Shown one piece after another: positions 19,960-63,893 of a DNA stretch of 64,000 nt. A program made the translations under genes and the position numbers. The notes below the pieces were generated by a model. It saw only the letters and a program-made list of their open reading frames with translations, was not told the origin of the DNA and did no database searches. Numbering within the stretch: the stretch's first letter is position 1; each line of letters starts with the position of its first letter. Source of the DNA: an uncultured Flavobacteriaceae bacterium (GTDB lineage: Bacteria > Bacteroidota > Bacteroidia > Flavobacteriales > Flavobacteriaceae); NCBI GenBank assembly GCA_943789465.1, contig CALSUF010000001.1, forward strand, positions 558,001 through 622,000, given 5' to 3'.

Positions 19960-19988
19960 AAAAAAGCCCCGCAAATGCGAGGCTGTTT
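19960..19988 (-). terminator. Terminator, copy 1 of a 29-bp perfect direct repeat
   Basis: GC-rich hairpin (GCCCCGC / GCGAGGC with one mismatch, loop AAAT) with a six-base A tract, i.e. a T6 tail on the minus strand. It ends the leftward PrcB-like gene and can also stop the convergent plus-strand gene. All 29 bases recur in the same orientation at 24631-24659. Confidence 0.75.
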
Positions 19989-19995
19989 TATGCGC

Positions 19996-20445
19996 TTATT
20001 GCTCCGTAACTATTTCTTTAGTTGTTTTGGGTATTTTAACAAAGTGATATGGACGCGTTGGAATAGTAGCATCACCTCCATTATTTAGTTTATCAATTAC
20101 AACTACTATGTTTTCGGCATTTTCAGTGATAGAAACAATATCGATACTATGACCTCCAGTTGGTTGTGGCATATCAAAAGCAGCAATAACGATATGTTCT
20201 TCAAAATTTACAATTGCTTCATCGGGTATTGCTGCTATTGACCAAACATCGGCAACAAAAGTATTCCATGAAGTTGAATTATCAAATGTTTCAATATGTC
20301 GTGTAGGATTGTAATTTCCGTTAAATAGTTCTCCTTTACCAATTTCAGTAAAAGTTATTTCAGTAGATTGAAATGGCGTTTGAGGGTCACTATTATTACA
20401 ACCTAAAGAAAGAAATAAGCTTAAAATTAAAAGTATTGTTTTCAT
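19996..20445 (-). CDS. PrcB-like lipoprotein, paralogue 1
   Basis: A 149-residue lipoprotein (lipobox LSLGC, Cys16). The mature part resembles the PrcB C-terminal domain: an SWNTF aromatic segment, a VIAAFDMPQPTGGHSIDI core with the conserved TGG turn, and the closing PYHFVKIPK strand. In Treponema denticola PrcB is a lipoprotein subunit of the dentilisin complex with the subtilase PrtP; here a subtilase gene lies upstream on the same strand. First 42 residues nearly identical to the neighbouring paralogue. The link to the protease is inference from family and position. Confidence 0.72.
   Translation of the reverse strand: MKTILLILSLFLSLGCNNSDPQTPFQSTEITFTEIGKGELFNGNYNPTRHIETFDNSTSWNTFVADVWSIAAIPDEAIVNFEEHIVIAAFDMPQPTGGHSIDIVSITENAENIVVVIDKLNNGGDATIPTRPYHFVKIPKTTKEIVTEQ
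20331..20429. repeat. 99-bp identical block in the paralogous lipoprotein genes, copy 1
   Basis: This stretch is base-for-base identical to 20821-20919. It encodes the signal peptide, lipobox and the first mature residues. Similarity continues past the start codon into the leader (through about 20467 and 20957) with two substitutions and one indel, while the downstream coding sequence is far more diverged. Confidence 0.9.
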
Positions 20446-20477
20446 GATTTAAAAAATTTAAAAGGTTAGAAGCCCTA

Positions 20478-20485
20478 CAAATTTA
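20478..20485 (-). promoter_or_regulatory. -7 box for PrcB-like paralogue 1
   Basis: TAAATTTG on the minus strand, 32 bp before the start at 20445 and overlapping the stop of paralogue 2. It would allow separate transcription of paralogue 1. Confidence 0.4.
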
Positions 20486-20935
20486 TTGCTCTGTAACTAT
20501 CTCTTTGGACGTTTTGGGTATTTTAACAATATGAAAAGGCTGAGTTATTACTGTACTAACAAATTCTGTTTCCTGAGTTGATATGGTAATGTTATCTTCA
20601 TTTTCTATTATGGTATTAATGACTACCTCCCAGCCATTACCTTTGATTTCTAAAAATACTGCAACAATGGAAAAGGTTTCAAAATCAATATTAGTTTCAG
20701 GGAAAGTATCAGAAATATTGTTTACGGAGTCCATTTGATTCATAAGATTTTGCCATTCTGTTTGGTTATTAATCAGAAGGCTTGTTTGTGAGATGTTTTC
20801 AACACCATTTCCAAACAACGCTCCTTTACCAATTTCAGTAAAAGTTATTTCAGTAGATTGAAATGGCGTTTGAGGGTCACTATTATTACAACCTAAAGAA
20901 AGAAATAAGCTTAAAATTAGAATTATTGTTTTCAT
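20483..20935 (-). CDS. PrcB-like lipoprotein, paralogue 2
   Basis: A 150-residue lipoprotein with the same leader as paralogue 1 (LILSLFLSLGCNNSDPQTPF) and the same C-terminal end (VKIPKTSKEIVTEQ), but a strongly diverged middle without the TGG turn (FLEIKGNGWEVVINTI instead). An aromatic WQNLMNQMDS segment sits where paralogue 1 has SWNTFVADV. Separated from paralogue 1 by 37 bp and from the subtilase by 59 bp containing a hairpin. Probably a diversified duplicate; on its own the PrcB assignment would be weak. Confidence 0.65.
   Translation of the reverse strand: MKTIILILSLFLSLGCNNSDPQTPFQSTEITFTEIGKGALFGNGVENISQTSLLINNQTEWQNLMNQMDSVNNISDTFPETNIDFETFSIVAVFLEIKGNGWEVVINTIIENEDNITISTQETEFVSTVITQPFHIVKIPKTSKEIVTEQ
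20821..20919. repeat. 99-bp identical block, copy 2
   Basis: Second copy of the block at 20331-20429; see that entry. The offset between copies is exactly 490 bp. Confidence 0.9.
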
Positions 20936-20960
20936 GATTTAAAAATTTAAAAGGTTAGGA

Positions 20961-20989
20961 TTAAAGCCCATGTATGTCATGGGCTTTAA
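20961..20989 (-). terminator. Hairpin after the subtilase gene
   Basis: Twelve-bp stem TTAAAGCCCATG (20961-20972) / CATGGGCTTTAA (20978-20989), 5-nt loop. It sits 6 bp past the subtilase stop with only a short T run on the minus strand, so it could terminate or attenuate transcription into the two lipoprotein genes. Confidence 0.65.
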
Positions 20990-20994
20990 AAATA

Positions 20995-23900
20995 TTATTG
21001 TTTAATTAACGTTTTAGCATCAACAATTGTGCCATCACAGACCAACGCAACCGTGTAAAACCCGTTGGAATAGCCAGAAAGGTTTAGGATTGTTTGGGTG
21101 CTTTCGGTATCTAAAACATAATTGTTAGACGTTCCATCTGAGCCGTACTGACCTATAACCATAAGATAGGCAGACTTTACCCCATTTAGGATATAACTCA
21201 CTTGAATTTCATTAGTCACAGGATTTGGCGACATCGCTTCAATAATACTGGGCTTTAATTTGACTTCAATTTCATCATAGTCTTTATACCCATCTTTTTC
21301 TGCCACAATTTCGAGTCGATATTTTTTGGCGACACCCGAAGAAACGGTTAAATCCTTTCCCTGATAAATTAAATTACCATCCGTATCATACCAATTATAA
21401 ACGGCTGCTTCATTGATTTGTTCAGCACTTATCGTAATGATTTCATTTTCATTAATTTCTTTATCATTGCCAGCGTCTGCTAAAAATAGGGGGCGTGATT
21501 TCTTTTTAATTAAAAAGGTCTCACCGCCAATAACCTCACCAGTAGTCACATCTTTTTGAACCACATGGTATGTAAACTCCGTTTTATCTGTTACTTCTTT
21601 TGTTAAGAAATTAAAGTTTAAGGTAATCAGCCCCGACTCTTTAGGTCTCATGACAAGGTTGTCTAATGTAGCATTGTTTCCGGTAATTAACTGTTTGGAT
21701 TCATCTGCTGTTATCAACCGCCCTCCAAAGCTATTTGTTTGGAAATATGTTGCTGGCTTTAATAACGCTTCCTGTTTCCCTCCTAGTTTCCATGCGTTAT
21801 ATATTTTTTCATCCATTTCAAGCCTTACTTCGGCTTCTTCAAAAATGGCTTTGCCGCCTTCATTTTTTTCTTTATAAAACTCAAGAATATATTTTTTAGT
21901 ACTTTTTGAAGGGTTTCCGACCATTACCATAGCTGCGCTTCTATCGGCTATTAAATCCACAACAGTCAAGTTTTTCCAAGCTAAATTATTATTATTCCTA
22001 ACCATAATGTTAGGATTAGAAGTCAGTGGCGATGTAAGTGGATCGTCCGTAGCATTTATTTTTGATAGTAAACAAAAATGCCAAGGGTTGTCATTATCCG
22101 AATAATTGTCTGGATTTGGAACTGCCCATGGAATTACCACAATTGCTTCCCCACCTCCTGGAATAACGGGAATGGCTACAGACGGCAGTTCATCTCCTAA
22201 ATCAAATCCTGCTGTATTTTGTAAACTTCCATCCCAATTTTGAGGCCATGCCAAAGCGGTATTGGCTTTCGCCCAGTTTACAGTGATTGTTTCGTTGCCC
22301 GTAGAAGCCACGCAACTTTTATTAATTACTCTTACATTGATATAATTTGTGGGATAATATGTAAATGGCGGTATTGATATTGGAGCTTTGTATTCTGGAT
22401 TTTGATGCACCAAACCATTGTCATTATTGTTTCTAATCCAAATATCTTGGCTTGTCCACATATGTTGTGTCACTGTATTTGGTTCTGTACCATCGTCATC
22501 AGGAGAGTCTTTGACATACAAATCCAAAGTCGATGAACCCATACTTTGTGCCATTTGAACAGCTGCATACGCATCCACTAAGCCATACCCCATTTCGTTA
22601 TTCCACGAGCCATTAGGGCGGTTCGAATTAGTTGTATAGGAATAATTCCCTACCTTCTGAGAGGTAACTTCAATAATATTGTTTACTTGTTGAGAGCTTA
22701 AGCAAGAATTTACAGAGAGAATTAGAGCCGCTACTCCAGCTACGTGTGGACATGCTGAAGAAGTTCCATTAAACGTTAAATGATAATCACTTGAAGAGTA
22801 CCCTAATCCTCCTTGTCTGTCAGTTGTTGGTATTTTCACCCCTGGAGCGACTACATCTAATTGATTTCCGTAACAACCACCCCAACTCTCGCCATCGCAA
22901 GAACTTGGGTTTTTTCTCTCACCACATGGACTCATTGCCCCAACAACTAATACTTCCGGAATTGCACTACCTGGGTATCTAATATTTGTATTGTTTTCAT
23001 TTCCTGAAGCAAAGACAACTATACATCCTTTCCCGTTTCTACCGTTATTTATTGCATTATAAATAGCATCTGTAATAATATTAGAAGGAGAATAACCACC
23101 CCATGAGTTACTAATTACTTCAACTCCGTTTTGCCATGCCCAATTAAAACCACTTGCTAATTGAACAGGGGTATCAGAGAATTGTAAGTTTATACTTATA
23201 GATACAATATCAGACTCTGGTGCTACTCCACTTACTCCTAAATTATTGTTTTGAACAGCTCCAATAATACCAGCACAGGCTGTACCATGGCTACCTCTTA
23301 CATGTGAGGGAGATGTTCCGGTTGTGGCATCAAATCCATTTCCAAATGTATTTGAAGCTAAATCAGGATGATTCATTTCAAACCCATGATCATATATAGC
23401 TACTTTCACATTGTTTCCTTTTGTTATATTCCAAGCTTGCTCTACATTTACATCTATACCCGCGTAGGCCGAACCATATTGCCCCGTGTTCTTTAAACCC
23501 CATTGATTTGTATATAAAGGATCGTTAGTTGTTTGTAAGTCATGATAAATGAATTCAGGTTCGGCTGTTAAAAATAAACCAGATTCATGAAATTGATTTG
23601 CGTATTCAAGTGAGTTTTTAGAATTTTTTTTAGTGCAACTTAAAATATACCAATTTGACATATAAGGGTCTTTACCAACTACTTCTAAATTATTGCTTTG
23701 AGCATAATTATATAAAGTAATTATTTCTGAAGTTGAACTAATTTTTACATAAAAATTATTAGTCAATCCAAGCCTTTTACCACTAATTGTTTTAAAACAA
23801 GGAGAGACTTTAATAGTATAAGAGTTTTGATTTAATAAATTAATAAAATTAGTGTAGTTTAATATGTTATTTTTAATTGTGTTTTTTACTTTAATTTCAG

Positions 23901-24174
23901 AATAATAATTATTTAAATTTATCCTGTTTTGAGAATTTGTGTCTGTTGGTGTAGAATATGATCTACTTTCATTTTCAACGAAATCAGTTTTTGATATATA
24001 ACTCGCAGAATAATTATTAAGGAAATTCAGATTATTATTTGAATTGATACTAATGAATTCTCTATCAAGATTAACATATACTTTTTCATTATCATAATAA
24101 TAGTAATTACTTTGAGCATTTGAAATAATAAAAGTGAATAAAAATAAAAACGATATGCAATATTTAATTTTCAT
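20995..24174 (-). CDS. T9SS-exported subtilisin-like (S8) protease
   Basis: A 1,059-residue secreted serine protease. Signal peptide at 1-20 (ISNA-Q), an Asn-rich N-terminal prodomain to about 215, the S8 domain at about 222-545 with triad Asp262 (IYDHGF), His296 (GSHGTACAG) and Ser472 (FNGTSSACPHVAG), oxyanion Asn392 (ASGNENN), then beta-sandwich regions and a type A T9SS sorting domain at about 980-1059 (EAMSPNPVTNEIQ ... LIKQ). All catalytic residues are intact, so an active extracellular or cell-surface protease is expected. Two PrcB-like lipoprotein genes follow on the same strand. The N-terminal quarter is strikingly AT-rich. Confidence 0.93.
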   Translation of the reverse strand: MKIKYCISFLFLFTFIISNAQSNYYYYDNEKVYVNLDREFISINSNNNLNFLNNYSASYISKTDFVENESRSYSTPTDTNSQNRINLNNYYSEIKVKNTIKNNILNYTNFINLLNQNSYTIKVSPCFKTISGKRLGLTNNFYVKISSTSEIITLYNYAQSNNLEVVGKDPYMSNWYILSCTKKNSKNSLEYANQFHESGLFLTAEPEFIYHDLQTTNDPLYTNQWGLKNTGQYGSAYAGIDVNVEQAWNITKGNNVKVAIYDHGFEMNHPDLASNTFGNGFDATTGTSPSHVRGSHGTACAGIIGAVQNNNLGVSGVAPESDIVSISINLQFSDTPVQLASGFNWAWQNGVEVISNSWGGYSPSNIITDAIYNAINNGRNGKGCIVVFASGNENNTNIRYPGSAIPEVLVVGAMSPCGERKNPSSCDGESWGGCYGNQLDVVAPGVKIPTTDRQGGLGYSSSDYHLTFNGTSSACPHVAGVAALILSVNSCLSSQQVNNIIEVTSQKVGNYSYTTNSNRPNGSWNNEMGYGLVDAYAAVQMAQSMGSSTLDLYVKDSPDDDGTEPNTVTQHMWTSQDIWIRNNNDNGLVHQNPEYKAPISIPPFTYYPTNYINVRVINKSCVASTGNETITVNWAKANTALAWPQNWDGSLQNTAGFDLGDELPSVAIPVIPGGGEAIVVIPWAVPNPDNYSDNDNPWHFCLLSKINATDDPLTSPLTSNPNIMVRNNNNLAWKNLTVVDLIADRSAAMVMVGNPSKSTKKYILEFYKEKNEGGKAIFEEAEVRLEMDEKIYNAWKLGGKQEALLKPATYFQTNSFGGRLITADESKQLITGNNATLDNLVMRPKESGLITLNFNFLTKEVTDKTEFTYHVVQKDVTTGEVIGGETFLIKKKSRPLFLADAGNDKEINENEIITISAEQINEAAVYNWYDTDGNLIYQGKDLTVSSGVAKKYRLEIVAEKDGYKDYDEIEVKLKPSIIEAMSPNPVTNEIQVSYILNGVKSAYLMVIGQYGSDGTSNNYVLDTESTQTILNLSGYSNGFYTVALVCDGTIVDAKTLIKQ

Positions 24175-24531
24175 AATTGTAGTGTTTAAAGTTTATAAAT
24201 GTTGAGGGCGTCATTTATTTATAAACTTTAAGGAGGATGCTCGTGTTTTAGATCAATCCTTTTGTTGTGCCCTATTTTGAAACTATTTTTCATTGTTCAT
24301 CTGTTGGCTAACGCCGCACTATACCCAGTGACGTTTTGGGTTTTTAAATTTAAGTATCAGAAGACACCGTTAAATTTAAAAGTTCCGTAGAACAGTGTTT
24401 GTTCTACACGTTATTCCCAGTGAAATAATCGCTTACGCTCAATTCAATTAATTAAGAAGAATTAGATTTGAGGTCTAATTTTTGTAAACGTAATAAAATA
24501 AAATAAATAATGAGTTGATTTTAGCCATACA

Positions 24532-24556
24532 AAAAGTAAGGGAAAACCTTACTTTT
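24532..24556. terminator. Strong orphan hairpin
   Basis: Perfect 10-bp stem AAAAGTAAGG / CCTTACTTTT with a GAAAA loop, rich in A before and T after, so terminator-like in both directions. No annotated gene ends here, which suggests an unrecognised small transcript. Confidence 0.5.
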
Positions 24557-24630
24557 AAAAAGTCCCTTCTTAAAACAAGGTTTTTTTTGTCAAAAATAGA
24601 GTTTAAGCCCCCACAATATATTTTGTGCAC

Positions 24631-24659
24631 AAAAAAGCCCCGCAAATGCGAGGCTGTTT
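24631..24659 (-). terminator. Terminator, copy 2 of the 29-bp direct repeat
   Basis: Identical to 19960-19988. On the minus strand the hairpin is followed by T6 and ends the OmpA-family gene, whose stop is 24 bp upstream. Confidence 0.8.
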
Positions 24660-54718: not shown

Positions 54719-56266
54719 ATGAATAAAGAATTAATAATTCGATCAAATTCAGACAATGTTGATTTTGCCTTATTAAAAGATGGAAAACTAATTGAATTTC
54801 AAAATGACGAAGATAACAGCAAATTTTCTGTTGGCGATGTGTTTTTAGCCAAAGTAAGAAAGTCTGTTCCGGGCCTCAACGCTGCATTTGTAAATGTAGG
54901 GTATCATAAAGATGCATTTTTGCATTACCATGATTTAGGACCTAAGCTTCCAACATTGATGAAATTCATGAAACGTGTAAGCACAGGTAAATTAAAAGAT
55001 TACTCTTTAAAAAACGTTACTTTTGAAGAAGATATTAAAAAAGATGGTAGTATTGACGCTATTATAAAGTCAAACCAATCTATTTTGGTTCAAATTGCAA
55101 AAGAACCAATTTCCACAAAAGGACCTAGAATTAGTTCCGAAATTTCACTTGCAGGGCGCTATTTGGTCCTTGTTCCTTTTTCAGATCGGATCTCAATTTC
55201 TCAAAAAATTGAAAGTAGAAAAGAAAAAGAACGCCTAAAACGACTTGTAAGAAGCATTACTCCCAAAGGATTTGGAGTCATTATCAGAACCGTTGCTACA
55301 GATAAAAAAGTGGCAGAACTCGATAAAGATCTTCAAAACTTGTATTCAAAATGGGAATCTATTTGTAAAGCGATACCCAGAGCTCATACACCAAGTAAAG
55401 TACTCGGTGAAATGAACAAAGCGTCCTCTATTCTTAGAGACATTTTCAATGATACCTTCACAGGTATTACGGTTGATGACGATTTGCTTTTCAATCAAAT
55501 TAAAGATTATGTTCATGAAATTGCACCTCACAAAGAGGCGATTGTGAAATATCACAATCCAAAAACGCCCATTTTTGAAAAATTCGGGATCGAAAGACAA
55601 ATCAAAACTTCATTTGGAAAAACCGTTTCAATGGCACGTGGGGCCTATTTGATTATAGAACACACAGAAGCCCTTCATGTGGTAGATGTCAATAGCGGCA
55701 ACCGTTCAAGTAAAGAAAGAAACCAAGAAGCAACTGCTTTAGAAGTCAATATCCTTGCAGCAACCGAACTCGCACGCCAATTTAGATTGCGTGATATGGG
55801 TGGTATTATTGTGGTGGATTTTATTGATATGAACAAAGCAGAGAATCGCAAAAAACTCTTTGATCATCTAAGAAATGAGATGAAAGACGATAGAGCCAAA
55901 CACAAAATATTACCTCCAAGCAAGTTTGGGTTAATTCAAATTACAAGACAACGTGTTCGACCTGTTATGAACATTAAAACTAAGGAAGCAAATCCTAATG
56001 GTTCTAATGGAGCAGAAGTGGAAGCACCCATTGTTTTGATTGATAAAATTAATCACCAGCTGGATCAAATTATGAAAAAAGGCTATAAAAAAGTGACTTT
56101 AAACACACACCCTTTTATAGCAGCCTTTATTACAAAAGGCTTCCCATCCATACGTTCAAAATGGTATTTTGAACATAAAAAATGGGTTAAAGTAATGCCA
56201 AGAGATGCTTACACATATCTAGAGTTTCATTTTAAAAATGAAAATGGCAAAACCATTAAACTGTAA
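54719..56266 (+). CDS. rng: Ribonuclease G/E family protein
   Basis: Endoribonuclease for rRNA maturation and mRNA decay. The 515 residues contain the S1 domain (about 35-120), the RNase H-like region and the DNase I-like catalytic domain with the metal ligands in VVDVNSG and IIVVDFIDM, then KFGLIQITRQRVRP. Length fits RNase G without the long RNase E scaffold. Downstream of the HU/small basic gene pair. Confidence 0.93.
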   Translation: MNKELIIRSNSDNVDFALLKDGKLIEFQNDEDNSKFSVGDVFLAKVRKSVPGLNAAFVNVGYHKDAFLHYHDLGPKLPTLMKFMKRVSTGKLKDYSLKNVTFEEDIKKDGSIDAIIKSNQSILVQIAKEPISTKGPRISSEISLAGRYLVLVPFSDRISISQKIESRKEKERLKRLVRSITPKGFGVIIRTVATDKKVAELDKDLQNLYSKWESICKAIPRAHTPSKVLGEMNKASSILRDIFNDTFTGITVDDDLLFNQIKDYVHEIAPHKEAIVKYHNPKTPIFEKFGIERQIKTSFGKTVSMARGAYLIIEHTEALHVVDVNSGNRSSKERNQEATALEVNILAATELARQFRLRDMGGIIVVDFIDMNKAENRKKLFDHLRNEMKDDRAKHKILPPSKFGLIQITRQRVRPVMNIKTKEANPNGSNGAEVEAPIVLIDKINHQLDQIMKKGYKKVTLNTHPFIAAFITKGFPSIRSKWYFEHKKWVKVMPRDAYTYLEFHFKNENGKTIKL

Positions 56267-56297
56267 AAAAGTCCCGCAATAGCGGGACTTTTTTTTT
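56265..56297 (+). terminator. Bidirectional terminator between rng and leuB
   Basis: Stem GTCCCGC (56271-56277) / GCGGGAC (56282-56288), loop AATA, A6 before and T9 after. It serves both convergent genes. Confidence 0.9.
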
Positions 56298-62334: not shown

Positions 62335-62364
62335 CACCAACAAAGTTCAATAGCTTACTGAGAT

Positions 62365-62482
62365 GTTATCAAGAAAGGTGAAGGGATTAGACCCGCTGAA
62401 GCCTTAGCAACCCTTTATTTATAGAGTAGGTGCTAAATTCTACTTGATTTTTGATTCATTTATCGAAAATTAGATAGATAAC
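62365..62482 (+). promoter_or_regulatory. SAM-I (S-box) riboswitch upstream of metY
   Basis: The conserved core is readable: GTTATCAAGAAAGGTGAAGG, then TTAGACCCGCTGAAGCCTTA, GCAACCC, and AGTAGGTGCTAAATTCTACT. The P1 stem pairs GTTATC (62365-62370) with GATAAC (62477-62482). It binds S-adenosylmethionine and controls sulfur/methionine genes; here the first downstream gene is metY. A hairpin CTAATTACA / TGTAATTAG at 62488-62509 follows and is the likely expression platform, although its T tract is weak. Confidence 0.9.
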
Positions 62483-62603
62483 TTAACCTAATTACAGTTC
62501 TGTAATTAGAATTTCTTAATAACATTTTTCTAATAAGTACACTTTTCACAAAGTGCATTTGGCTTTTGGTTTAATTAATGTATTAACTCAAAAAACTAGA
62601 AAA

Positions 62604-63893
62604 ATGAGTACTCAAAAATTCGCAACCCAAGCGTTGCATGCAGGACACAATGTGTCAGAAAATGGAGGCACAAGAGCCGTTCCTATTTATCAATCTACAG
62701 CCTATGTGTTTAACAGCTCAGACCACGCCGCAAATTTATTTGCCTTAGCAGAGCCAGGAAATATTTACACGCGTATAAACAATCCAACAAACGATGTCTT
62801 AGAGCAACGTTTAGCAGCTTTAGAAGGTGGTATTGCAGCAGTAGTTACCGCCTCAGGAACTGCAGCCATTGCAACAAGTCTTTTGACTTTGCTCAAAGCA
62901 GGTGACCATATTGTAGCATCCAGTAGTTTATACGGAGGCACCTACAATTTATTAAGTGTGACTCTCCCAAGACACGGAATTACAACTACATTTGTAGACC
63001 CTTCAAATCCAGAAAACTTTAAAACAGCCGCTCAAGAAAACACGAGAGCCTTTTTTATTGAATCTTTAGGAAACCCAAAATTAGATGTCCTCGATATCGA
63101 AGCAATTTCTAAAGAAGCAAAAGCTTATAAAGTTCCTTTAATCGTAGATAATACCGTAGCGACTCCTTATTTATTGAATCCAATCGCTTACGGAGCAAAT
63201 ATTGTCATTCAATCTCTTACAAAGTATATCAATGGAAATGGAACGGCTTTAGGGGGTGCCATTATTGATGCTGGAACCTTTGACTGGGCCAGTGGAAAAT
63301 TCCCTGAATTTACAGAGCCCTCTCCAGGATATCATGGTCTCGTTTATAACGAAGTCATTGGTGCTGCCTCTTTTATTGCGAAAGTAAGAATCGAAGGGTT
63401 AAGAGATTACGGTGCAGCTTTAAGTCCATTTAACGCATTTCAAATTATACAAGGCTTAGAAACTTTAGAACTTAGAATTCAGAAGCACAGTCAAAACGCG
63501 TTAGAACTTGCTCAGTGGTTACAAAAACAAGAAGATGTAGAATGGGTAAATTATCCAGGATTAGACTCAAGTCCATACAAAGCATTAGCAGATAAATATT
63601 TGCCGAACGGTCAAAGCGGTATTGTCACTTTTGGAGTTAAAGGAGGTTTTGAAGCTGCTAAAACAATTGCAGATACCACCAAGTTGTTCTCATTATTGGC
63701 AAACATTGGAGATACCAAATCGCTTATTATTCACCCTGCAAGTACAACACATCAACAATTAAACGATGCCGCACAAGAATCAACGGGCGTTACCAAAGAT
63801 TTAATTCGTTTATCAGTTGGTCTTGAAAATGTAGACGATTTGAAATCAGACCTGACAGAAGCGTTTAAAGTTGTTAAAACTGTTTTTGCATAA
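62604..63893 (+). CDS. metY: O-acetylhomoserine sulfhydrylase
   Basis: PLP enzyme making homocysteine from O-acetylhomoserine and sulfide. The 429 residues include TQALHAGHN, PIYQSTAYVF, YTRINNPTNDVLEQRLAALEGG, the PLP-lysine block QSLTKYINGNGTALGG and the C-terminal STTHQQLNDAAQ. The start at 62604 (MSTQKFATQ) is chosen over an upstream in-frame ATG at 62553 that lies in the leader. Controlled by the SAM riboswitch; metX follows 18 bp later. Confidence 0.95.
   Translation: MSTQKFATQALHAGHNVSENGGTRAVPIYQSTAYVFNSSDHAANLFALAEPGNIYTRINNPTNDVLEQRLAALEGGIAAVVTASGTAAIATSLLTLLKAGDHIVASSSLYGGTYNLLSVTLPRHGITTTFVDPSNPENFKTAAQENTRAFFIESLGNPKLDVLDIEAISKEAKAYKVPLIVDNTVATPYLLNPIAYGANIVIQSLTKYINGNGTALGGAIIDAGTFDWASGKFPEFTEPSPGYHGLVYNEVIGAASFIAKVRIEGLRDYGAALSPFNAFQIIQGLETLELRIQKHSQNALELAQWLQKQEDVEWVNYPGLDSSPYKALADKYLPNGQSGIVTFGVKGGFEAAKTIADTTKLFSLLANIGDTKSLIIHPASTTHQQLNDAAQESTGVTKDLIRLSVGLENVDDLKSDLTEAFKVVKTVFA

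What the first reader, a model, noticed from the sequence alone, without database searches (positions are those of the whole stretch)
19996..24174. T9SS subtilase paired with two PrcB-like lipoproteins
An intact secreted subtilase (Asp262, His296, Ser472, C-terminal T9SS domain) is followed on the same strand by two small lipoproteins resembling the PrcB C-terminal domain. In Treponema denticola PrcB belongs to the dentilisin complex with subtilase PrtP. A similar pairing in a T9SS organism would suggest lipoprotein partners that anchor, mature or restrain an exported protease. PrcB resemblance was judged by eye and is stronger for paralogue 1.
Basis: partly seen in the sequence, partly recalled or inferred. 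Interest (0 to 1): 0.68.

Follow-up and report, generated by a model that had tools for sequence, protein, structure and literature searches.

The report
Exported protease with paired guard lipoproteins
A bacterium carries, on a small inserted piece of DNA, a secreted protein-cutting enzyme next to two small lipid-anchored proteins that most likely restrain it, a layout that echoes the protease and inhibitor pairs of a gum bacterium but is built from a different protein family.

Summary
Window 20995-24174 (-) encodes a 1059-aa S8 subtilase with Asp262, His296, Ser472 and a weak but consistent T9SS sorting tail. Two lipoproteins follow and match PrcB_C (29.7 and 23.2 bits; cut-off 24). PrcB_C genes in general do not sit beside S8 genes: 1 of 68 other fetched family loci. 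Relatives of this pair do pair up in F. haoranii, an Ekhidna MAG and genome G342. It is not dentilisin: PrtP and PrcB equivalog cut-offs are missed by far. The closest solved subtilase is Tannerella mirolase, a KLIKK protease paired with a lipoprotein inhibitor (potempin). The parallel goes further. The C-terminal half occurs elsewhere on metalloproteases. Small lipoproteins of several unrelated types sit beside 10 of 17 window-type subtilases, against 3 of 116 control genes. PrcB-like lipoproteins persist where no window-type subtilase was found (G123, G411). The unit is a 4.7-kb island between 29-bp terminator-like repeats; nine of 18 same-genus genomes have the site empty. Best reading: a horizontally moving, modular exported protease with lipoprotein inhibitors, potempin-like in function, PrcB-like in sequence. 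Export, binding and inhibition are inferred, not shown.

The parts
20995..24174 (-). S8 subtilase, 1059 aa: signal-peptide-like start, YYYY-type N-terminal segment, catalytic domain (D262, H296, S472), long C-terminal half, T9SS sorting tail ending TLIKQ
   Evidence: best solved relative by sequence mirolase 8ehe, E 4.2e-44
22531..24174 (-). N-half (residues 1-548, with the catalytic domain): 74-75% identical in F. haoranii L121 and Ekhidna MAG L122
20998..22530 (-). C-half (residues 549-1059), shared with S8 proteases of another type and with M43-like metalloproteases (61% with L123, 40% with L166)
20998..21224 (-). T9SS sorting tail; survives in same-genus genome G123 as a 74-aa ORF within a 96%-identical DNA stretch (20821-21224), with no protease upstream
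20483..20935 (-). PrcB-like lipoprotein B (proximal, 150 aa), proposed protease inhibitor
19996..20445 (-). PrcB-like lipoprotein A (distal, 149 aa); closer to the single lipoprotein partner in F. haoranii (49% identity) than B is (33%)
20331..20462 (-). Leader block of lipoprotein A: 132 nt, 97% identical to the leader of B although the gene bodies are diverged; a likely recombination patch
20821..20952 (-). Leader block of lipoprotein B, partner of the patch above
19960..19988 (.). 29-bp terminator-like repeat, left end of the island (single copy in the empty site of G400)
24631..24659 (.). 29-bp terminator-like repeat, right end of the island, identical to the left copy
19989..24630 (.). 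Island: absent from nine same-genus genomes, where the matches to the two flanking genes end 61-73 bp apart
24175..24630 (-). Non-coding stretch upstream of the subtilase; 24410-24630 lies in a stretch conserved at the same site in G123

Best explanation
This is a protease and guard-lipoprotein unit. The subtilase is made with an N-terminal prodomain, crosses the outer membrane through the T9SS, and works on the surface or in the medium. The two PrcB-like lipoproteins are anchored in the producer's outer membrane and bind the subtilase, so that it does not digest the producer's own surface or fire during export. That is the job potempins are reported to do for the KLIKK proteases of Tannerella forsythia. 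The system is modular: catalytic domain, C-terminal export half and lipoprotein type are exchanged by recombination, and the unit is gained or lost as a small island. Shown by sequence: genes, domains, island with empty sites, modularity, tight linkage, lipoproteins without the protease. Inferred: surface export, outer-membrane anchoring, binding, inhibition.
For: (1) The best solved relative of the subtilase is mirolase (8ehe), E 4.2e-44 against 2.2e-31 for the next chain. KLIKK proteases are preceded by small lipoprotein ORFs (PMC4404884, passages) stated, from then unpublished data, to inhibit the coexpressed protease specifically (PMC7296668, passages). (2) A small lipoprotein sits beside 10 of 17 window-type subtilases with visible flanks, from a 4-bp overlap to 109 bp away, against 3 of 116 large control genes. 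The six that are not PrcB-like (L126, L135, L137, L140, L170, L172) show no BLAST similarity to each other or to the PrcB-like ones at E 0.001, as in Tannerella. (3) Catalytic domain and C-half are exchanged separately: N-half 74-75% identical in L121 and L122; C-half 61% identical in L123 and 40% in L166, which carry HExxH motifs and M43-like domains. L123's neighbouring lipoprotein is not PrcB-like but related to lipocalin-like ones. (4) PrcB-like lipoproteins occur without a window-type subtilase in G123 (two, beside an orphan sorting tail) and in G411 (one). (5) The leader of A is 113/115 identical to that of B but 102/115 to its own orthologue in G123, whose next 112 bases are 112/112 identical: recombination between lipoprotein genes.
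Against: No binding or inhibition was tested. The only PrcB studied at the bench is needed for PrtP to be detected, and is not described as an inhibitor in the passages I saw (PMC8167434). 7 of 17 window-type subtilases have no small lipoprotein beside them. Most PrcB_C loci of the family are nowhere near an S8, including the 14 closest non-seed lipoproteins looked at, so the 'narrow type' is partly defined by its neighbour. The predicted PrcB-like fold matched no solved structure clearly (inconclusive). Side and order of the lipoprotein vary, whereas potempin genes nearly always precede the protease. In one published crystal mirolysin cleaved its neighbouring lipoprotein (PMC6949598, passages).
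Confidence: 0.55

Rival explanations
1. Dentilisin-like partner: the lipoproteins bind, stabilise, mature or anchor the subtilase at the surface, as PrcB does for PrtP in Treponema denticola.
For: Both lipoproteins share the PrcB C-terminal family. A non-polar prcB deletion in T. denticola leaves PrtP undetected, and PrcB is proposed to anchor the complex (PMC8167434, passages).
Against: PrtP and PrcB equivalog models are far below cut-off and the island holds no third gene of PrcA size. The lipoprotein type beside this subtilase type changes, and none is seen in 7 of 17. PrcB-like lipoproteins occur without the subtilase (G123, G411), which a dedicated stabiliser would not explain. A T9SS tail already gives a route to the surface.
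Confidence: 0.2
2. Interbacterial weapon: the subtilase is a polymorphic antibacterial effector and the lipoproteins are immunity proteins protecting producer and kin, with orphan immunity genes in non-producers.
For: Island with empty sites, module swapping, lipoprotein pair in swapped order in G123, lipoproteins without the protease. A link between polymorphic toxins and the T9SS is proposed for Bacteroidetes (PMC7073777, passages).
Against: Nothing shows killing, and exported subtilases are mostly thought of as nutritional or virulence proteases (recalled). It shares its core claim, lipoprotein inhibition, with the best explanation.
Confidence: 0.12
3. Hitch-hiking: lipoproteins and subtilase are independent cargo of one insertion hot spot and do not interact.
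For: In G123 the same site holds the lipoproteins with unrelated genes and no subtilase. Most PrcB_C genes, the closest non-seed relatives included, have other neighbours.
Against: PrcB-like lipoproteins sit by the same subtilase type in three other genomes (L121, L122, G342), and other small lipoproteins take their place with gaps of 1-16 bp in L126, L135, L137, L140 and L170.
Confidence: 0.13

Closest known systems
KLIKK proteases with potempins, Tannerella forsythia (mirolase listed with potC, mirolysin with potD in PMC7296668)
   Same: T9SS-type subtilisin-like and pappalysin-like proteases that share a C-terminal part; a small lipoprotein gene of variable family next to the protease; the window subtilase is closest to mirolase among solved chains
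   Different: Lipoproteins downstream here, tandem, and PrcB-like; tail ends TLIKQ, not KLIKK; C-halves 40-61% identical in the comparisons with the window, not nearly identical; one protease with this C-half in this genome (three in G263); island between terminator-like repeats
Dentilisin (prcB-prcA-prtP), Treponema denticola
   Same: Subtilase plus PrcB_C lipoprotein in one locus
   Different: No PrcA-sized third gene in the unit; protease with a T9SS tail; lipoproteins downstream; equivalog cut-offs not reached
TANFOR polymorphic toxins of Bacteroidetes (PMC7073777, passages)
   Same: Swappable modules and small cognate partner gene, proposed link to T9SS
   Different: No TANFOR domain among the Pfam and NCBIfam matches listed; protease rather than nuclease; partner is a lipoprotein; no killing shown

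Membership tests
PrcB_C (PF14343) | Score over Pfam gathering cut-off (24 bits) | tested here: met
   A 29.7 and 31.3; B 23.2 in hmmscan, just below, and 24.8 in the six-frame search
Dentilisin complex | PrtP equivalog score (cut-off 300 bits) | tested here: not met
   62.7 bits
Dentilisin complex | PrcB equivalog score (cut-off 125 bits) | tested here: not met
   23.5 bits for A, no match at E 1 for B
Dentilisin complex | PrcA gene in the operon with PrcB and PrtP | tested here: not met
   the island holds only the protease and two lipoproteins as ORFs of 80 aa or more on that strand; the rest of the genome was not searched for PrcA
KLIKK protease / potempin system | Protease is T9SS cargo of a serine or metallopeptidase class | tested here: met
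   S8 domain; sorting tail weak, 21.2 of 27 bits, six of seven homologous tails matched; SprA present; export itself not tested
KLIKK protease / potempin system | Tail ends in -KLIKK and is nearly identical among the proteases of one genome | tested here: not met
   ends -TLIKQ; one protease with this C-half in the genome at E 1e-20
KLIKK protease / potempin system | Small lipoprotein gene immediately upstream of the protease | tested here: not met
   two lipoprotein genes immediately downstream here; upstream in L122, L126, L135, L137 and, as one of two, G342
KLIKK protease / potempin system | Lipoprotein inhibits the neighbouring protease | not testable with these tools
   needs a binding and activity assay
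KLIKK protease / potempin system | Lipoprotein has a potempin fold (OB or up-and-down barrel, recalled) | tested here: inconclusive
   model of B, pLDDT 77.8; best Foldseek E 0.22, best VIA Z 3.7
Polymorphic toxin and immunity systems | Toxicity to other bacteria neutralised by the partner gene | not tested

The most novel reading that the evidence does not exclude
PrcB-like lipoproteins include a new family of protease-specific surface inhibitors, and flavobacteria carry a mobile, combinatorial set of T9SS proteases and matching inhibitor lipoproteins that works as an attack-and-immunity system between neighbouring bacteria, with orphan inhibitors as acquired resistance.
Probability: 0.2. Interest if true: 0.8.

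Novelty: new variant of a known kind. Interest (0 to 1): 0.57.

Why it matters
If right, the protease plus potempin arrangement known from one gum bacterium is a wider, horizontally moving feature of Bacteroidota, and part of the PrcB_C family gains a testable function. It would also suggest rereading PrcB of Treponema dentilisin as a binder that controls a protease rather than only a structural subunit.

Tried and rejected
PrcB_C beside S8 as a general rule: rejected. Of 68 fetched loci (65 genomes: every PrcB_C match listed except the window's own two, a 22-position fragment in G120 and a frame with two stops in G076), one had a window-like S8 in the fetched stretch (phmmer E 1e-5, so a very diverged S8 could be missed; about 6 kb each side where contigs allowed). 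Neighbour clustering covered 67 of the 68, because no ORF was called for the match in L039. The S8 position list was truncated and serves only as a cross-check.

The PrcB scores for L121, L122, L127 and L139 are circular, since those proteins were in that profile; one search repeats the test with a profile of 63 other PrcB_C proteins and still finds all six PrcB-like partners (54.6 to 122.4 bits), with L137 and one L170 protein only marginal (E 0.004 and 0.003). On this second look I also examined the 14 closest non-seed lipoproteins: none lies beside a window-like S8. I lowered the best explanation from 0.58 to 0.55 and raised hitch-hiking from 0.10 to 0.13 for that reason.

Viral carriage: no relative of lipoprotein B in viral contigs; phage and plasmid records were not searched. 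Anti-phage defence: no PADLOC match for the lipoproteins, a subtilase model for the protease. RNA families: nothing in the unit at gathering score, only a SAM riboswitch elsewhere. Solved relatives of the lipoproteins: none convincing by phmmer or profile. Fold matches: none convincing; absence of potempins from the list proves nothing. The lipocalin-like lipoprotein of L123 folded badly (pLDDT 45) and was not searched; its profile found nothing convincing in the PDB. A class-wide profile search for the window-like lipoproteins gave 3 of 267 genomes at E 1e-10, the window's own included, so the type is rare.

Rows dropped before the 10 of 17 count: L124 and L169 (a flank not visible); L130 and L179, which my regular expression flagged but which I judged by eye not to carry the YYYY segment; all S8 loci of other groups (L129, L131-L134, L136, L141-L143, L168, L171, L173, L174, L176-L178, L180, L184-L196), of which L191, L194 and L196 also have a lipoprotein. 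L126 lacks the YYYY motif but was kept. Eight of the ten positives were called by the script's lipobox rule; L121 (start codon read too early) and L122 (gene cut by the contig end) were added by hand. L183 counts as negative, although a 58-aa lipobox ORF lies directly downstream, too short for the rule. The control genes come from the loci around PrcB_C genes, the loci are not independent, and the group was chosen after looking, so the Fisher values (1.4e-8 for 10 of 17, 1.7e-6 for 8 of 17) are only a guide.
Full report
What is there. On the minus strand a 1059-aa subtilase (20995-24174) is followed after 59 bp by a 150-aa lipoprotein B (20483-20935), and after 37 bp more by a 149-aa lipoprotein A (19996-20445). 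The S8 domain scores 147.7 bits and the catalytic triad residues are in place. The last hundred residues match the T9SS sorting tail weakly (21.2 of 27 bits), but six of seven aligned homologous tails, the window's included, match the same family, and the genome encodes SprA. PrcB_C scores 29.7 bits for A and 23.2 for B against a cut-off of 24, 31.3 and 24.8 in the genome search, and nothing else in the assembly (85% complete) matches at E 10. A and B are 50% identical.

The unit is an island. A 29-bp terminator-like sequence is repeated without a mismatch at 19960-19988 and 24631-24659. In same-genus genome G400, whose flanking gene product is 97% identical, the matches to the two flanking genes end 61 bases apart and the gap region holds one copy of that sequence. 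Of 18 genomes of the genus, nine have the two flanking genes 61-73 bp apart (G397-G401, G404, G406, G408, G409), two are filled (the window and G123), five have another gene order after the 128-aa gene (G315, G403, G407, G410, G411), and two could not be judged (G402, G405). In G123 the site holds the lipoproteins in swapped order, a lipocalin-like lipoprotein and unrelated ORFs; of the subtilase only a 74-aa ORF of the sorting tail is left. G411 has a single B-like lipoprotein (82% identical) at another place, between rpsT-like and rho-like genes named by eye, on an 8.3-kb contig. G123 has three S8 genes, none near the lipoproteins and none matching the window subtilase at E 1e-60. G411, 86% complete, has one S8, on another contig.

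The lipoprotein genes recombine. The first 115 bases of A and B in the window are 113/115 identical while the next 115 are 48/115. A in the window and A in G123 are 102/115 in the first block and 112/112 in the next. So the leader of A in the window has most likely been overwritten by that of B.

General PrcB_C genes are not protease partners. In 397 genomes of the family, 68 have a PrcB_C match at E 0.01. I fetched 68 loci from 65 genomes: one, G342, has a window-like S8 beside it. In 33 of 67 loci analysed the gene just upstream is one and the same glycosyltransferase-like gene (named by eye). The 14 closest non-seed lipoproteins have no window-like S8 beside them. The closest of all (G047, 148.6 bits) sits in a run of four small genes, at least two of the others with lipobox-like starts, without a protease in view.

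The pairing in relatives. G342 has a PrcB-like lipoprotein on each side of an S8 with sorting tail (one scores 32.0 bits for PrcB_C, the other is under Pfam's reach but 36% identical to B and found by an independent profile at 70.4 bits), then an orphan sorting tail and a Lipocalin_4 lipoprotein. F. haoranii (MAG, L121) has a 1034-aa relative followed by one lipoprotein closer to A (49%) than to B (33%). An Ekhidna MAG (L122) has a PrcB-like lipoprotein, cut by the contig end, just upstream of a subtilase 75% identical over the N-half.

The pattern is wider than PrcB. I looked at the neighbours of window-type subtilases from the family, class and named-genome searches. With flanks visible, 10 of 17 have a small lipoprotein directly beside them on the same strand: window, L121, L122, L126, L135, L137, L139, L140, L170, L172. 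L125, L128, L138, L175, L181, L182/L200 and L183 do not. Control: 3 of 116 large genes, and 0 of 38 with a signal-peptide-like start. The partners of L126, L135, L137, L140, L170 and L172 reach no Pfam cut-off (one L170 partner not scanned) and show no BLAST similarity among each other or to the PrcB-like ones at E 0.001. G494 has two lipoprotein paralogues in tandem (35% identical), as in the window, then a third lipoprotein (L206).

Modules are exchanged. The N-half is 74-75% identical in L121 and L122, but L122 has another C-terminus. The C-half is 61% identical in L123 and 40% in L166, whose N-terminal parts carry HExxH motifs and each score 22.7 bits for M43, just under the cut-off of 23. 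L123's neighbour is a lipoprotein about 30% identical to the lipocalin-like ones of G123 and G342, itself without a Pfam hit; L123's protease gene is split by a frame change in that record. One genome, G263, holds two S8 proteases and one metalloprotease with this C-half. Each is followed by a further protein; two of the three were scanned and have their own sorting tail. Orphan C-half tails occur in G123 and G254.

What it works like. Among solved chains the subtilase is closest to mirolase (E 4.2e-44). Mirolase is one of six KLIKK proteases of T. [quoted passage not shown] Those lipoproteins are stated to inhibit the coexpressed protease specifically (PMC7296668, passages, citing data to be published). 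Mirolysin, of the pappalysin family, incubated with its neighbouring lipoprotein gave a crystal in which the lipoprotein had been cleaved and a piece stayed in the active-site cleft (PMC6949598, passages). That potempins are outer-membrane lipoproteins of two barrel folds is recalled, not read here; the primary paper was not among the four listed under 'potempin'. The alternative model, T. denticola dentilisin, makes PrcB a partner needed by the protease: without it PrtP is not detected (PMC8167434, passages).

Judgement. The best-supported reading is a guard or inhibitor pair that works like KLIKK/potempin but is not a member: tail motif and gene order differ, and inhibition is untested. I found no paper that gives PrcB-like proteins that role, in searches whose listings I saw (open-licence library only). 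The predicted structure of B (pLDDT 77.8, strands with one helix pair) has no clear solved relative, which leaves the fold question open.

Noticed in passing
62363-62484 (+): SAM riboswitch (RF00162, 70.8 bits) upstream of the ORF at 62553-63893.
   Followed up: no
19960-19988 and 24631-24659; similar hairpin at 56265-56295: Terminator-like repeats around the island, and a sequence elsewhere in the window that matches hairpins at the empty sites of some relatives; such hairpins may be preferred insertion or recombination points.
   Followed up: partly
L033:7214-10163 (G123): At the same site in G123 three ORFs of 166, 215 and 526 aa without a Pfam family over cut-off stand where the subtilase would be.
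   Followed up: partly
L129-L134, L136, L142, L143, L163, L166, L201: Proteases with the same C-half are followed by a protein of about 230-400 aa; in L129, L163, L166 and L201 it has its own T9SS sorting tail by Pfam, in the others by eye, and it looks lipocalin-like by eye; possibly secreted inhibitors of a second kind.
   Followed up: partly
33 of the 67 PrcB_C loci analysed among L033-L100: A PrcB_C protein lies just downstream of one conserved glycosyltransferase-like gene; unrelated to proteases and unexplained.
   Followed up: no
L092:5063-7115 (G047): Run of four small same-strand genes: a PrcB-like lipoprotein close to the window type among three others, one of them lipocalin-like by eye, with no protease in view; perhaps an array of orphan inhibitors.
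   Followed up: partly
L161:1477-1836 (G254): Orphan 119-aa C-terminal sorting tail of the same protease family, with no protease in front in the fetched stretch.
   Followed up: no
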